A stretch of DNA of 64,000 nucleotides, taken from contig NZ_BJKN01000001.1 in the NCBI RefSeq assembly GCF_006538365.1, positions 62,001 to 126,000 on the forward strand. Reading direction: 5' to 3'. The stretch comes from Moorella sp. E308F (GTDB lineage Bacteria > Bacillota > DSM-521 > Neomoorellales > Neomoorellaceae). A program made the translations under genes and the position numbers. The notes under the pieces were generated by a model. It did no database searches. It had not been told where the DNA came from and was given only the letters and a program-made list of their open reading frames with translations. This document shows positions 21,934 to 26,598 of this stretch, piece after piece; the first letter of the stretch is position 1; each line of letters opens with the position of its first letter.

Positions 21934-23157
21934 TTGACCAGCAAAACGGTTTTGAGTGATGCGAGCAAAGGAAGTTATGTATGGCAATCTATAAAAGGTG
22001 GTTGGTTAAGGATATTTACCGAACCCTGGCCTATTGGAGTAGGTGTCTTTGCTCTAACCATTACCAACTTATTTATGTTCATGTATGCCCGGGCCCTGGG
22101 CGTCTTTCCCCAAATGGCCATGTGGGGGAGCTGGCTTTATAATCTGGTGGGGATTAAAACTGAAAGCCCATTTATCCCTTACCCTGTAAAGCCTATTTAT
22201 CTGGATATGCATAGCTTGATTGACATAGGTATCATAGCTGGTACCCTTGGGGCTTCTCTGTTGGCCCGTGAATTTAAAATTCGTAAAGAAGACTGGCAGG
22301 GTTATCTCTGGGGCGCTGCTGGGGGCATACTGATGGGTTTGGGTACTGTCCTGATGCCTCCATGTAATATAGGAGGATTCTGGGTAGCTACCATGGCCTT
22401 TTCTTTAAGCGGTCCCCTGTCTGCTGTAGGTCTTTTGCTGGGTGCTTATGTTGGAGGCAAAATTTTACAATATCAAATGCGTAAAGCCCTGCAAAAGCTT
22501 GATTTCACCACGGCGCCAAAGGGAGAAACGAAAGCGGCAGAAGTTTTATCCCGTCAACCCCAATGGGGAGTCCTGGTATTTTCCCTTTCACTTCTCATCG
22601 CTGTCATTTATTACATTGCAGGCATGCCCAAAAATACAGGTCTCTTTTTATTTGGGATTCTTTTTGGGCTGATTATCCAGCGTTCGCGTCTCTGCTTTGT
22701 AGCTGCCTTCCGTGAAATTTTGGTCAGCCGTGACGGTAAGGTTATGAAGTGGCTATTGCTGGGAATGGCTGTGGGAGCCATGGGTTTCGCCATCCTCAAG
22801 GCCCAGGGCTATCAGCCTGCGCATATGGTTTTTCCCGCAGGATGGCATAATATCGGGGGTGGCTTCATTTTTGGTATCGGCATGGTCCTGGCCGGAGGAT
22901 GCGGTGTGGGTATCCTGGCGCGGAGCGGTGAAGGCTACACGCGTTCCTGGGTGGCGATTTTAACCGCCATGTTAACCTCTGGTGCCTGGGTACACATTTA
23001 TGGCCAGAAGGTGGGACAGGGATGGCTATACGGGAAACCGGTATACCTGCCTCAATTATGGGGCTGGGGAGGGGCTCTGGCTTTTATCTACGGCTTCTTG
23101 CTGCTGTTCTACTTATTTATCCTCTGGGTGGAGGCTGGAAAGCATGAAAGAGCTTAA
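21934..23157 (+). CDS. YeeE/YedE-family transporter (sulfur/selenium uptake type)
   Basis: A 407-residue membrane protein with two copies of the YeeE/YedE (sulfur transport) unit. The conserved cysteine motifs are 'LMPPCNIGGFW', 'QRSRLCFVAAFRE' and 'GGCGVGILARSGEG'. In the family TsuA/YeeE imports thiosulfate, passing it along cysteines; YedE relatives associate with selenium metabolism. The start is TTG behind AAAGGAGTGA (10 bases). The TusA-like gene overlaps its end by 14 bases. The upstream 210 bases separate it divergently from the sigma-54 activator and contain a small ATTCC-AAAAA-GGAAT dyad at 21843-21857. Confidence 0.88.
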   Translation: MTSKTVLSDASKGSYVWQSIKGGWLRIFTEPWPIGVGVFALTITNLFMFMYARALGVFPQMAMWGSWLYNLVGIKTESPFIPYPVKPIYLDMHSLIDIGIIAGTLGASLLAREFKIRKEDWQGYLWGAAGGILMGLGTVLMPPCNIGGFWVATMAFSLSGPLSAVGLLLGAYVGGKILQYQMRKALQKLDFTTAPKGETKAAEVLSRQPQWGVLVFSLSLLIAVIYYIAGMPKNTGLFLFGILFGLIIQRSRLCFVAAFREILVSRDGKVMKWLLLGMAVGAMGFAILKAQGYQPAHMVFPAGWHNIGGGFIFGIGMVLAGGCGVGILARSGEGYTRSWVAILTAMLTSGAWVHIYGQKVGQGWLYGKPVYLPQLWGWGGALAFIYGFLLLFYLFILWVEAGKHERA

Positions 23158-23401
23158 TGCGGTTAAGGTAAACGATAACCATTATCAGGTTGATATGCGC
23201 GGGTGGATGTGCCCGTATCCCAAGTACGCCGTTGCAACCCTCCTGGAAAAACTACCGCCGGCCAGCTTTTTAAACCTTTTAGTCGACTGTCCTTCCGCAA
23301 CAAAGGACGTACCTGACCTGGCTAAAAATCAAGGGTATGATGTGCAGAAGGTCGAACTTCTGAGGGACGGGGAATGGATGATTTGTATAAGCAATAAATA
23401 A
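23144..23401 (+). CDS. TusA/SirA-family sulfur carrier protein
   Basis: An 85-residue TusA-like protein with the hallmark CPxP motif (GWMCPYPKYAVATLL), whose cysteine carries sulfur (or selenium) as a persulfide. ATG 23144 lies inside the end of the YeeE/YedE gene with a GGAGG site 10 bases before it, so the two are translationally coupled and probably work as transporter plus intracellular acceptor. The internal Cys in 'LLVDCPSATKDVPD' matches the conserved second half of the family. Confidence 0.9.
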   Translation: MKELNAVKVNDNHYQVDMRGWMCPYPKYAVATLLEKLPPASFLNLLVDCPSATKDVPDLAKNQGYDVQKVELLRDGEWMICISNK

Positions 23402-23467
23402 TATTGATTACACCTTTACTTATCATTACCCCTCCTTTACAAGGCAATAGAGTATTCATAAGCTTCT

Positions 23468-24301
23468 TCACAACCTGTTTTCTACGGATTGACCTTTAAC
23501 GATATAATCTGCGAGACCTGTTTTCCCGTTTTCTTTTGCCAACACATTTTTAAACTTAACAGGCAGTCCCGCGGAAGCAAAAAAGCTTCTCCCGTCATTC
23601 AATTGAAAATGAACATGGGGTTCGCTGGTATTCCCGGAGTTGCCGCATCTGGCAATTACTTGCCCCCGGACAACCTTCTGACCTAATGTAACGGTTATGC
23701 TGTTGGGCATGAGGTGAGCGATGGTGCTGAACTCTTTTTCATTATGTTTGAGCGTAATAAAATTTCCGCGGATATCTTTCGCCCTGCATTCAGCCCTGCC
23801 GTCACCATATACCTTGCTTTCAGGATGCCCGTCGGCCATACTAACAATTTCACCGTCGGCAGGCGCTAGAATGTCTTTCCCGTAGCAGTAATAATCCTGC
23901 AGCTGCTTGCCGCTGCCGGAGCAGGTTTTTCCACTTTCATCAACTATAACAAAATCATAGGCATAGCGCTGCGGCCACACGCCCCAGGAATGGGAGGTTC
24001 TCTTGTCTACGCCGCCGTTTGCGACGTACCACTGTCCCTTAAAGGGCAATATGTATTCCGTCATACCGACATAATTATCTTTTGACGGCAGACGAAAACG
24101 ATGGCGGAATAATATCAAAGGATAAGAGAGAAGCTGTTGAATACTCTGGTAGAATGCCGGCAGATTGCTGAATATCTCAATAAACCCAAGCAAAAAGAAC
24201 AGCCAGAAAAGCTTAAGGTAAGCATTGCCGGTGATGCTGCCCAATAGCCCAATTAAGCCGATCCATTTAAATTTTGCCAGAATATTTACAAACCTGTGCA
24301 T
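23468..24301 (-). CDS. Membrane-anchored M23-family peptidase
   Basis: A 277-residue protein: two hydrophobic segments at residues 10-50, then a LytM/M23 zinc metallopeptidase domain. Metal-ligand motifs are visible as 'HSWGVWPQRYAYDF' (H-x8-11-D) and 'EPHVHFQL' (HxH), with the typical 'GNFITLKHNEKEFSTIAHLMPNSITV' between. M23 enzymes cleave peptidoglycan cross-links. It is the third gene behind the DUF3796 and XRE genes, with 17 bases after the XRE stop. Base composition is visibly more AT-rich than the flanks, suggesting acquisition with the whole module. Confidence 0.85.
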   Translation of the reverse strand: MHRFVNILAKFKWIGLIGLLGSITGNAYLKLFWLFFLLGFIEIFSNLPAFYQSIQQLLSYPLILFRHRFRLPSKDNYVGMTEYILPFKGQWYVANGGVDKRTSHSWGVWPQRYAYDFVIVDESGKTCSGSGKQLQDYYCYGKDILAPADGEIVSMADGHPESKVYGDGRAECRAKDIRGNFITLKHNEKEFSTIAHLMPNSITVTLGQKVVRGQVIARCGNSGNTSEPHVHFQLNDGRSFFASAGLPVKFKNVLAKENGKTGLADYIVKGQSVENRL

Positions 24302-24318
24302 ATCTTAGCCACCCCACG

Positions 24319-24522
24319 TCACTCTTCTGTAATTTCAAAAATATCTTCGACTGTTGTATGAAAAACCTTTGCTATGTCAAGCGCCAGTTTTAAGGACGGA
24401 TTGTATTTACCGTTTTCCAAATGGCCGATCGTTTCACGCCTTACGCCGACCAAAGCCGCCAATTCTTCCTGCTTCATATTGTATTTGGCTCTGTATTCCT
24501 TGATTTTGGTTTTGATCATCAT
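24319..24522 (-). CDS. XRE-family helix-turn-helix regulator (YozG/YvaO-like)
   Basis: A 67-residue one-domain HTH_XRE repressor: 'KIKEYRAKYNMKQEELAALVGVRRETIGHLENGKYNPSLKLALDIAKVF' (helix-turn-helix around residues 15-40). Overlaps the upstream DUF3796 gene by four bases (ATGA). This compact regulator type commonly pairs with a DUF3796 or DUF2178 membrane protein gene. A perfect inverted repeat in the operon promoter region (24880-24912) is its probable operator, giving autoregulation. Confidence 0.92.
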   Translation of the reverse strand: MMIKTKIKEYRAKYNMKQEELAALVGVRRETIGHLENGKYNPSLKLALDIAKVFHTTVEDIFEITEE

Positions 24523-24860
24523 AAACTGCTACCGCTTTCTCTTATCTCACACACCATCAGTATGACGGTGAACACGAAGATGGACAACGCCATTCCAAGC
24601 CCCATTCCAAGCGTCGGTAATGCATCATTATTCATCAACACCCTCAGCATAATCGTAACCGCCGATGATGCAAGTCCAGTAAAGAATGCGGGTGTTGCCG
24701 CTTTTTGAACATTGGCTTTAAACAATTCATCCGGTATAACAAAAAAATACCGAATGTAGTACAGAAAACCCCAAAATCCTAGGTATGCCTTATTATCCGT
24801 TAAAAAACCCAGTGTACCTAATACTGCAAGAAGACTTAAATAACCCAATTTGTTTTTCAA
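24519..24860 (-). CDS. DUF3796-type membrane protein paired with an XRE regulator
   Basis: A 113-residue protein with four hydrophobic helices and the family-like core 'GFLYYIRYFFVIPDELFKANVQKAATPAFF'. Function unknown; in similar pairs the membrane protein is thought to be controlled by, or to antagonise, the adjacent XRE repressor. The start is TTG 24860 with AAGGGAGAG 6 bases upstream. First gene of the DUF3796-XRE-M23 operon. Confidence 0.8.
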   Translation of the reverse strand: MKNKLGYLSLLAVLGTLGFLTDNKAYLGFWGFLYYIRYFFVIPDELFKANVQKAATPAFFTGLASSAVTIMLRVLMNNDALPTLGMGLGMALSIFVFTVILMVCEIRESGSSL

Positions 24861-24879
24861 TGGTATCTCTCCCTTGTAT

Positions 24880-24912
24880 GATATATTTATAACTCCATGT
24901 TATAAATATATC
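24880..24912. promoter_or_regulatory. Perfect 14-bp inverted repeat, probable XRE operator
   Basis: GATATATTTATAAC (24880-24893) and GTTATAAATATATC (24899-24912) are exact reverse complements with a TCCAT spacer. It lies 20 bases upstream of the first gene of the DUF3796-XRE-M23 operon, where a repressor would block transcription. Confidence 0.75.
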
Positions 24913-25201
24913 ACATTTCAAACCTAAGTCAAGTATATTTAACGAACTTATTGAAAGCTTATGATATAACATTAAAATCTAATCTTGTCCGGTTGGTGTA
25001 ATTTTGATATAGAAGATCTACCTATACCTAATTAAAGCTTTCATCAATTTTTCTTAATAAAGCGCGAAAAAGCCCGGTCTTTCTGGACTTTTCGCGGGTC
25101 AGCATTGTATCAATATTGACGGGATAATATGATGAAAACAAGAGATTTAAACCTCTTTCTAAAATCACAGTAGACATGTTTCCGCGAACAATCACATAGA
25201 C
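24913..25201. other. AT-rich gene-free stretch with a hairpin
   Basis: No reading frame here has a credible start and ribosome binding site. A 79-codon minus-strand frame (25028-25267) runs through the structured element at 25202-25279 and looks accidental. A hairpin CGCGAAAAAG...CTTTTCGCG occupies 25063-25096. The stretch separates the acquired module from the RNA methyltransferase gene. Confidence 0.5.
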
Positions 25202-25279
25202 AAAAAAAGCAGGGCTTCCCGGCATCCTTACCACCCGCCGACACTCTTTCGGCAGATAGTAAAACACCGGAAAGCCCTG
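25202..25279 (-). terminator. Large two-stem terminator structure after the rRNA methyltransferase
   Basis: On the minus strand, CAGGGCTTTCCGG pairs with CCGGGAAGCCCTG (one mismatch) around an inner 7-bp stem CTGCCGA/TCGGCGG, with asymmetric loops between, followed by seven T. It starts 23 bases after the stop at 25303. It terminates transcription, but the nested architecture is larger than needed. Confidence 0.65.
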
Positions 25280-25302
25280 TATTTAAGCCGTTTTTCAAGC
25301 CT

Positions 25303-26598
25303 TTATCCGTTCTTTACATTTTGCATCAGAACCACGCACTCAACATGACGGGTGTGGGGAAACAAGTCCACCGGCTGCACCGGGCCCGGGGTGAAGCCGG
25401 CTTCTCGCAGGTAGGCCAGGTCCCGGGCTAAAGTTGCCGGGTTACAGGAAACGTAGACAACCCGCCCGGGTGCCATGGCCGCCACTGCCGCCAGTACCCG
25501 GCGGTCGCAGCCGGCCCGGGGCGGGTCCAGGATAACAACTTCCGGCCGGTAGCCTGCCCCGGCCAGGCGGGGTAATACTACCTCGGCGGCCCCGGCACGG
25601 AACCTCGTATTGGTAATGTTATTTAAAGCAGCATTGCGCCGGGCGTACGCAATGGCCTCCGCTACCACTTCTACCCCGGTAACCCTTCCCGCCTGCCGGC
25701 TCAACCACAAGGCAATGGCCCCGCTGCCGCAGTAGGCATCGAGGACCTCTTCGCCGCCCTGCAGGCTGGTAAAGGCTGCTGCCTGGTTGTAGAGGGTCTC
25801 AGCCTGGACGGTGTTAACCTGAAAGAAGGTAGTAGCAGAGATATGGAAGCGTAGTTCTCCCAGACGCTCCTCCAGGTAATCCCGGCCGTAGAGGATAGTT
25901 TCCTCAACCGCCTCCCTGCTGTTATTAAAAGGCAAGGCTACCACTCCCACCAGCTCCAGGAAGCGGCCGGCCAGTTTCACCGCTAACTCCTTGCCGCCCG
26001 GCCAGCCCGCCTCAACCTCCAGGGCTACCAGCAACTCCCCTGTAGCCCGGCCCTGGCGCAGGGTCACGTGCTTGAGGCCCGGAGCCAGCCCCGGTAGCAG
26101 CCGGGCCATCTCCCGGGCCAGTTCCAGGAGACCGGCAGGTAAGAGGGGGCAATGAGAAGAGGGTACTACTTCATGGCTTCCCGGCCGATAAAAGCCCAGC
26201 CGGCCTCTCGCCACATGGAGCCGTACCTTATTGCGGTAGCCCCAAGGATTGGCCATTCCCACAACCGGCAAGACCCGGATGTCCCGCAAACCTCCCAGGC
26301 GCTGCAAGGCTTCTACAACCAGACGCCGTTTCCACAGCAGCTGGGCCCGGTAGTCCAGGTGCTGCAGGTGGCAGCCGCCGCAATGGTGCGCCTCTGGACA
26401 GGGAGGCAACACCCGGTCCGGGGAGGCTTTTTCGATCTCCAGCAGCCGGGCCAGGGCATAATTCTTCTTCCTGGCTACCAGTTCTATTTTTACCCTTTCC
26501 CCCGGCAGGGCCCCTGGTACAAAAACAGCCAGGCCGTCCTGCAAGCGCCCCACGCCAGCCCCTTCATGGGTTAACCCGGTAATGTCAACCTTTTCCAT
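25303..26598 (-). CDS. 23S rRNA (uracil-5-)-methyltransferase, RumA/RlmD family
   Basis: A 431-residue class of SAM-dependent m5U methyltransferase. An N-terminal TRAM domain (about residues 1-60) is followed by the iron-sulfur cysteines 'CPEAHHCGGCHLQHLDY'. The catalytic domain has 'DAYCGSGAIALWLS' (SAM), 'ILDPPRAGCD' and the catalytic 'YVSCNPATLARDL'. Firmicutes copies (RlmCD) modify U747 and/or U1939 of 23S rRNA. It starts 4 bases after the CPBP protease stop, so the two are co-transcribed. Confidence 0.95.
   Translation of the reverse strand: MEKVDITGLTHEGAGVGRLQDGLAVFVPGALPGERVKIELVARKKNYALARLLEIEKASPDRVLPPCPEAHHCGGCHLQHLDYRAQLLWKRRLVVEALQRLGGLRDIRVLPVVGMANPWGYRNKVRLHVARGRLGFYRPGSHEVVPSSHCPLLPAGLLELAREMARLLPGLAPGLKHVTLRQGRATGELLVALEVEAGWPGGKELAVKLAGRFLELVGVVALPFNNSREAVEETILYGRDYLEERLGELRFHISATTFFQVNTVQAETLYNQAAAFTSLQGGEEVLDAYCGSGAIALWLSRQAGRVTGVEVVAEAIAYARRNAALNNITNTRFRAGAAEVVLPRLAGAGYRPEVVILDPPRAGCDRRVLAAVAAMAPGRVVYVSCNPATLARDLAYLREAGFTPGPVQPVDLFPHTRHVECVVLMQNVKNG

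What the first reader, a model, noticed from the sequence alone, without database searches (positions are those of the whole stretch)
24319..24912. Perfect 14-bp palindrome plus DUF3796-XRE-M23 operon: self-controlled mobile module
The exact inverted repeat lies right before the operon, and the XRE gene is translationally coupled to a membrane protein. Adding a membrane-anchored M23 peptidase to this pair is unusual, and the region is AT-richer than its flanks.
Basis: partly seen in the sequence, partly recalled or inferred. Interest (0 to 1): 0.5.

Follow-up and report, generated by a model that had tools for sequence, protein, structure and literature searches.

The report
Self-regulating membrane-protein/repressor operon with peptidase
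A small acquired operon encodes a membrane protein, a DNA-binding repressor and a cell-wall-type peptidase, and its palindrome looks like a repressor binding site that recurs in front of similar gene pairs in many distantly related bacteria; it resembles the little-studied two-protein switch that controls the enterococcal cytolysin genes.

Summary
A perfect 15+5+15 inverted repeat (24879-24913) lies before a minus-strand operon: DUF3796 membrane protein, XRE (4-nt overlap), membrane M23 peptidase (17-nt gap). It is part of a 39-bp operator (24877-24915) made of two 18-bp dyads, TGTKATA-N4-TATMACA, centres 21 bp apart, with the -10 hexamer inside the first dyad. The operator precedes 60 of 62 distinct DUF3796-XRE loci and was absent from 41 control loci. 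A strict pattern search of 398 genomes gave 25 sites: 24 precede an XRE gene, 23 of them with a membrane-protein gene between, including partners that Pfam does not assign. Thus the site tracks the XRE (RRETI recognition segment), not DUF3796. The closest solved relative of the XRE is CylR2 of the CylR1/CylR2 cytolysin switch. M23 is an uncommon third member: 9 of 62 loci, 7 intact, all in one subclade. The 1.9-kb AT-rich islet is absent from all 10 other genomes of the genus, and one congener shows the empty tusA-rlmD junction, but nothing in it can mobilise it. Best reading: an autorepressed CylR1/R2-like membrane switch carrying an envelope peptidase. DNA binding, signal and M23 substrate are untested.

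The parts
24877..24915 (.).
24879..24913 (.). perfect inverted repeat 15+5+15
24905..24932 (-). sigma-70-type promoter: TTGACT (24932-24927), 16 nt, TATATT (24910-24905, inside the promoter-distal dyad)
   Evidence: the same layout in other loci
24867..24873 (-). probable ribosome-binding site GGGAGAG before the TTG start
   Evidence: sequence
24519..24860 (-). DUF3796 membrane protein, 113 aa, four predicted helices, invariant Asp44-Glu45
24319..24522 (-). CylR2-like XRE/HTH_3 regulator, 67 aa, recognition segment VRRETI
23468..24301 (-). M23 peptidase, 277 aa, N-terminal membrane helices then M23 domain; conserved H104, D116, H196, H229, H231
23402..25302 (.). AT-rich acquired islet between tusA (ends 23401) and the 23S rRNA methyltransferase-like gene (25303-26598)

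Best explanation
This is an autorepressed membrane-protein/XRE switch of the CylR1/CylR2 kind with an added envelope peptidase. Shown: the conserved promoter-operator layout, the gene pairing and the acquired islet. Inferred from conservation: two XRE dimers bind side by side on the 39-bp operator (dyads two helical turns apart), cover the -10 and the start site, and shut off their own operon. Inferred by analogy: the DUF3796 protein, made together with the XRE by coupled translation, senses something at the membrane and lifts repression, probably through its Asp-Glu loop. The M23 protein is then made as the effector that cuts or remodels peptidoglycan or a peptide at the cell surface. The unit reached this genome by horizontal transfer as a 1.9-kb passenger.
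For: Operator found by leave-one-out matrix before 58 of 62 XRE-linked loci (99% null threshold 3.3 bits), and before 2 more whose gene start had been misplaced. 63 sites above 15 bits in 74 loci (301,564 bases), all before a DUF3796 gene; none in 41 control loci (153,512 bases). In 398 genomes, 25 pattern sites: 18 before DUF3796-XRE pairs; of the other 7, five before another membrane ORF plus XRE, one directly before an XRE, one before neither. Reversed-pattern control: 3 strand hits in 2 genomes. -35 at 17 bp from the internal -10 in 49 of 58 loci (window: 16); at least 4 of 6 consensus bases in 55 of 58 (shuffled 24%). Operator position 4 and its mirror are complementary in 54 of 59 (0 of 2000 shuffles). 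All 61 distinct pair XREs carry RRE[TS][IV]; 3 of 3 unlinked XREs do not. Only one perfect dyad in the own genome; at <=2 mismatches 22 against 18 in the control. XRE start overlaps or lies within 20 nt of the membrane gene stop in 60 of 61 pairs. Closest solved XRE: CylR2, 5.4e-13. M23 fold Z 14.4, rmsd 3.1, 133 residues to a LytM domain. Empty site in G008.
Against: No binding or expression data. Sequence relatedness inflates conservation counts; the covariation test does not correct for the tree. No XRE column covaried with the operator in a way that singles out the recognition segment, because that segment is almost invariant. Sensing by DUF3796 is by analogy only: CylR1 was not compared and the DUF3796 fold has no clear solved match (best Z 7.8, common for helical proteins). 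The M23 topology is unclear (two or three membrane passes), and the first His-to-Asp spacing differs from canonical M23. No peptide toxin gene was recognised beside the islet.
Confidence: 0.62

Rival explanations
1. Immunity/resistance module like SdpR-SdpI: the membrane protein is itself the protective protein and sequesters the autorepressor when a toxin peptide is bound; M23 adds protection by cutting the toxin or wall.
For: Same gene logic (autorepressor plus membrane protein that protects against a toxin) is described for sdpRI (PMC6818787, passages); patchy acquired distribution.
Against: SdpR is recalled as an ArsR-type protein, not XRE; no toxin genes recognised nearby; no resistance data.
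Confidence: 0.25
2. Toxin-antitoxin pair: DUF3796 is a membrane toxin and XRE its antitoxin and autorepressor.
For: Two small coupled genes, palindromic operator at the promoter, sporadic acquired distribution. Makarova et al. 2009 saw conserved XRE-membrane protein pairs and left open that some could be TA (PMC2701414, passages).
Against: The same authors excluded such pairs because no type II system with a membrane component was known; PADLOC gave no match for DUF3796 or M23, and only generic HTH matches for XRE.
Confidence: 0.08
3. The M23 protein is the signal-transducing protease, releasing the XRE by cleavage in the manner of ImmA acting on ImmR.
For: Metalloprotease next to an XRE repressor; if there are only two membrane helices its domain could face the cytoplasm.
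Against: M23 is absent from 53 of 62 pairs, although the operator is kept in 60 of the 62; its fold is that of peptidoglycan peptidases; distant homologues L067-L069 begin with lipobox-like export signals (my reading).
Confidence: 0.04
4. The inverted repeat is an RNA hairpin or chance palindrome, not an operator.
For: The repeat could fold if both arms were transcribed.
Against: The -10 lies inside the upstream arm, so the transcript from this promoter would carry only the other arm; spacing to the -35 is conserved; chance rate 0.05 per 64 kb.
Confidence: 0.01

Closest known systems
CylR1/CylR2 of Enterococcus faecalis cytolysin
   Same: Standalone 66-aa XRE repressor (51.5 bits; about half of 61 aligned residues identical by my count of the printed alignment) encoded with a small membrane protein; repressor acts at a promoter (review PMC3709268, passages).
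   Different: CylR1 is predicted to have three membrane helices, here four are predicted; CylR2 controls a divergent toxin operon, here the site fronts the pair's own operon; no lanthipeptide genes recognised; recognition segment RRETI against SRQTI; an M23 gene is added.
XRE-membrane protein pairs noted by Makarova et al. 2009 (YoaS-like and others; PMC2701414, passages)
   Same: Conserved adjacent XRE repressor and membrane protein.
   Different: DUF3796 is not named in the passages I saw; no operator, third gene or mechanism was given there.
SdpR/SdpI of Bacillus subtilis (PMC6818787, passages)
   Same: Autorepressor plus integral membrane protein in one operon.
   Different: Different repressor fold class (recalled) and a known toxin ligand.
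BcrR of enterococci (recalled, no call)
   Same: XRE DNA-binding domain working with four membrane helices.
   Different: One fused protein; here two separate proteins.
LytM/lysostaphin-type M23 peptidases
   Same: Fold (Z 14.4, rmsd 3.1, 133 residues to 7qrl) and conserved HxH and catalytic His.
   Different: Membrane helices at the N terminus and unusual spacing before the Asp ligand.

Membership tests
CylR1/CylR2-type switch | standalone XRE of about 66 aa similar to CylR2 | tested here: met
   phmmer 5.4e-13 over residues 3-63
CylR1/CylR2-type switch | adjacent small multi-helix membrane protein | tested here: met
   four predicted helices, mean pLDDT 93.3; DUF3796 and XRE paired in 62 of 74 distinct loci
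CylR1/CylR2-type switch | membrane protein homologous to CylR1 | not tested
   CylR1 sequence was not fetched
CylR1/CylR2-type switch | repressor site overlapping a promoter | tested here: met
   -10 inside the operator; binding itself not testable here
CylR1/CylR2-type switch | control of a two-component lanthipeptide toxin operon | tested here: not met
   operator occurs once in the genome, before this operon only; neighbours are tusA/yeeE-type genes and a methyltransferase-like gene
Type II toxin-antitoxin | toxin activity neutralised by the XRE | not testable with these tools
   PADLOC has no match for DUF3796
Self-mobile element | own recombinase, transposase or mobile carrier | tested here: not met
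   no recombinase-like ORF among those listed in the islet (read by eye); no plasmid or phage match for DUF3796
Acquired genomic islet | empty site and absence in relatives | tested here: met
   absent from 10 of 10 other genus genomes; G008 has 26 bp between the flanking matches
M23 peptidase | Pfam M23 above cut-off and M23 fold | tested here: met
   53.6 bits against cut-off 28.7; Z 14.4
M23 peptidase | metal and catalytic residues | tested here: inconclusive
   H196, H229, H231 in 18 of 18, D116 in 17 of 18, H104 in 15 of 18 at the same column; 11 residues lie between H104 and D116 instead of 3 (canonical spacing recalled)

The most novel reading that the evidence does not exclude
One operator code and one near-invariant XRE recognition segment (RRETI) define a wide, uncharacterised family of phosphorelay-free membrane switches in Bacillota and Chloroflexota. 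Several membrane-sensor families of different sequence, all with an Asp-Glu loop, plug into the same repressor, and effectors such as the M23 peptidase are added as cargo. CylR1/CylR2 would be one distant branch.
Probability: 0.4. Interest if true: 0.65.

Novelty: new variant of a known kind. Interest (0 to 1): 0.5.

Why it matters
CylR1/CylR2 is a known but mechanistically unexplained way to pass a signal through the membrane without a kinase; one paper states that its prevalence in other gene clusters has not been explored (PMC11343131, passages). The present data give a conserved operator that can be used to find such switches in genomes, including ones whose membrane partner matches no curated family, and a compact three-gene operon with a testable output. 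DUF3796 appeared in only two papers in one full-text search, one occurrence each.

Tried and rejected
Fused XRE-DUF3796 proteins: none confirmed; one 617-aa open frame (L110) matched DUF3796 weakly and was not pursued after the one plus-strand frame I translated showed many stops and low-complexity sequence. Homology of the M23 N-terminal hairpin to the DUF3796 first hairpin: 14.9 bits in a small search, but hhalign probability only 13.5%, so not claimed. Covariation of XRE residues with operator base 4: signals spread over the protein, as expected from relatedness. A regulon beyond the operon: dyad matches elsewhere in the genome hardly exceed the control. Rfam: only a tRNA in the window at gathering thresholds. 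Fold of DUF3796 in the PDB: Z 7.8 at best, not informative. Search in papers for two or more of XRE, DUF2178, DUF3796, DUF3169, DUF6442: none. The CylR2 structure paper (PMC517608) is not held; its content is recalled only. Rows dropped: 12 of 86 loci as near-duplicates by the first 60 residues of DUF3796; 15 of 74 from the column and symmetry counts (score 20 or less, or N); one more from the -35 count for lack of upstream room; 4 of 62 from the tree (58 rows). L053 gave no hit.

Full report
OBSERVATION. The minus-strand operon is DUF3796 (24519-24860), XRE (24319-24522) and M23 (23468-24301), preceded by a perfect inverted repeat 24879-24913 with arms of 15 bp and a 5-nt spacer. It is the only repeat of its class in the window and far above chance. 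The XRE start overlaps the DUF3796 stop (ATGA), and M23 starts 17 nt after the XRE stop, which leaves no room for a promoter there; the consensus scan lists none in that gap.

OPERATOR. A -35 (TTGACT) and a -10 (TATATT) were found, the -10 lying inside the upstream arm of the repeat. Aligning the stretches upstream of DUF3796 genes from other genomes shows that the repeat is part of a 39-bp element, consensus TGTGATATATTTATAACATAAAGTTATAAATATATCACA. Reading the columns, it consists of two 18-bp dyads TGTKATA-N4-TATMACA whose centres are 21 bp apart, that is, about two helical turns (the two-dimer reading is inference). With a leave-one-out matrix 58 of 62 XRE-linked loci exceed the 99% null threshold; L023 and L120 have the site further upstream, giving 60 of 62. 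The two misses are L042, where only the right half is visible, and L133, whose DUF3796 match is below the Pfam cut-off. Scanning all 74 distinct loci, 63 sites exceed 15 bits and all lie in front of a DUF3796 gene; 41 control loci have none. The -35 lies 17 bp from the internal -10 in 49 of 58 loci (16 in the window), and 55 of 58 have at least 4 of 6 consensus bases against 24% after shuffling. Base 4 and its mirror are complementary in 54 of 59 loci (G-C in 36, T-A in 18), never reached in 2000 shuffles. That test ignores relatedness.

WHAT THE OPERATOR TRACKS. A pattern of the two dyads (up to 3 mismatches) was searched in 398 genomes of the phylum: 25 sites in 24 genomes; the reversed pattern gave 3 strand hits in 2 genomes. 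Eighteen sites in 17 genomes lie before DUF3796-XRE pairs. Of the other seven, L164 precedes a DUF3796-like protein below the Pfam cut-off plus an XRE; L141, L147, L148 and L153 precede membrane ORFs that reach no Pfam cut-off, plus an XRE; L146 directly precedes an XRE; L154 has no XRE and is probably chance. So 24 of 25 sites precede an XRE and 23 of 25 a membrane ORF plus XRE. The strict pattern finds only 17 of the 41 genomes with DUF3796; the matrix finds most of the rest. The XREs at L141, L147, L148, L153 and L164 carry RRET, and all 61 distinct pair XREs carry RRE[TS][IV]; three of three unlinked XREs in the same loci do not. L146 carries TRETI. The membrane partners share an Asp-Glu followed some residues later by Lys/Arg-Ala (read by eye); Asp44-Glu45 are the only invariant residues of 38 aligned DUF3796 proteins. 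This makes the XRE the likely binder and DUF3796 one of several exchangeable partners. Binding is not shown.

REACH OF CONTROL. In the own genome the full operator occurs once and a perfect dyad once; dyads with up to 2 mismatches number 22 against 18 in the control. The switch appears dedicated to its own operon.

DISTRIBUTION. DUF3796 was found in 41 of 398 phylum genomes (40 over the cut-off) and in 24 of 391 genomes of the class of a Clostridium relative (23 over the cut-off). Two loci are labelled Chloroflexota (L008, L009). Of 74 distinct loci 62 have the XRE within 150 bp, and in 60 of 61 measured pairs the genes overlap or lie within 20 nt.

THE M23 MEMBER. M23 follows the pair in 9 of the 62 loci: intact in L001 (this genome), L002, L003, L004, L051, L120 and L128, cut by an internal deletion in L005, and a short remnant in L006. 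L002-L005 are close to each other, so the independent number is smaller. On a tree of DUF3796+XRE (58 rows) all nine lie in one 15-row group of weak support inside a supported 17-row clade; 4 changes of the label are needed, 3 forced by well-supported branches. Homologous M23 genes occur in 30 of 398 genomes at E <= 1e-12; of the 28 loci inspected (L057-L084), only L060, the same place as L051, has the XRE upstream. M23 is therefore an independent family joined to the pair rarely but recurrently. Its predicted structure has three N-terminal helices and an M23 domain (mean pLDDT 91.4), with Z 14.4, rmsd 3.1 and 133 aligned residues to the LytM domain of DipM. H196, H229 and H231 are invariant in 18 aligned homologues and D116 is present in 17; H104 shares its column with His in 15. 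Distant homologues L067-L069 start with lipobox-like signals (my reading), which suggests an extracytoplasmic role; the orientation of this protein is not settled.

ORIGIN. The 1.9-kb islet has GC 0.418, nearly the lowest in the window. Its DNA is absent from the 10 other genomes of the genus (two of these are under 90% complete). In G008 the matches on the tusA side end at 23390 and those on the methyltransferase side begin at 25333, with 26 bp between them, so the arrangement without the islet exists. In G001 the islet is absent and most of the methyltransferase gene too. The nearest DUF3796 relatives (79-87% identical) are in other taxa. No plasmid or phage record matched DUF3796. Hence horizontal acquisition, without evidence of self-mobility.

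COMPARISON. CylR2 is the closest solved protein to the XRE. [quoted passage not shown] XRE-membrane protein pairs were seen in 2009 and set aside (PMC2701414, passages). The present operon works like CylR1/R2 in anatomy, but the lanthipeptide target is missing and CylR1 homology was not tested, so membership is not claimed.

Noticed in passing
L141, L146, L147, L148, L153: The same operator fronts XRE genes with membrane partners that reach no Pfam cut-off (weak DUF6442-like signal in L147, L148 and L153), or with none at all (L146): probable unannotated relatives of this switch.
   Followed up: partly
window 21934-23401: A sulphur-transport (YeeE/YedE-like) gene and a TusA-like gene of lower GC (0.486) adjoin the islet; in G002 the matches run from the sigma-54 activator gene straight to the methyltransferase gene, so this junction seems to gain and lose genes repeatedly.
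   Followed up: partly
L099 (G001): In one congener the methyltransferase-like gene next to the islet is reduced to a 29-bp match, with tusA about 94% identical beside it.
   Followed up: no
L003 1-8339: A contig binned as an uncultured actinobacterium carries the trio with the same downstream neighbour as L002 and L004; probably mis-binned, or a recent transfer.
   Followed up: no
window 25205-25284: Imperfect 18-nt inverted repeat with a 44-nt loop in the AT-rich stretch beside the end of the methyltransferase-like gene; no Rfam match.
   Followed up: no
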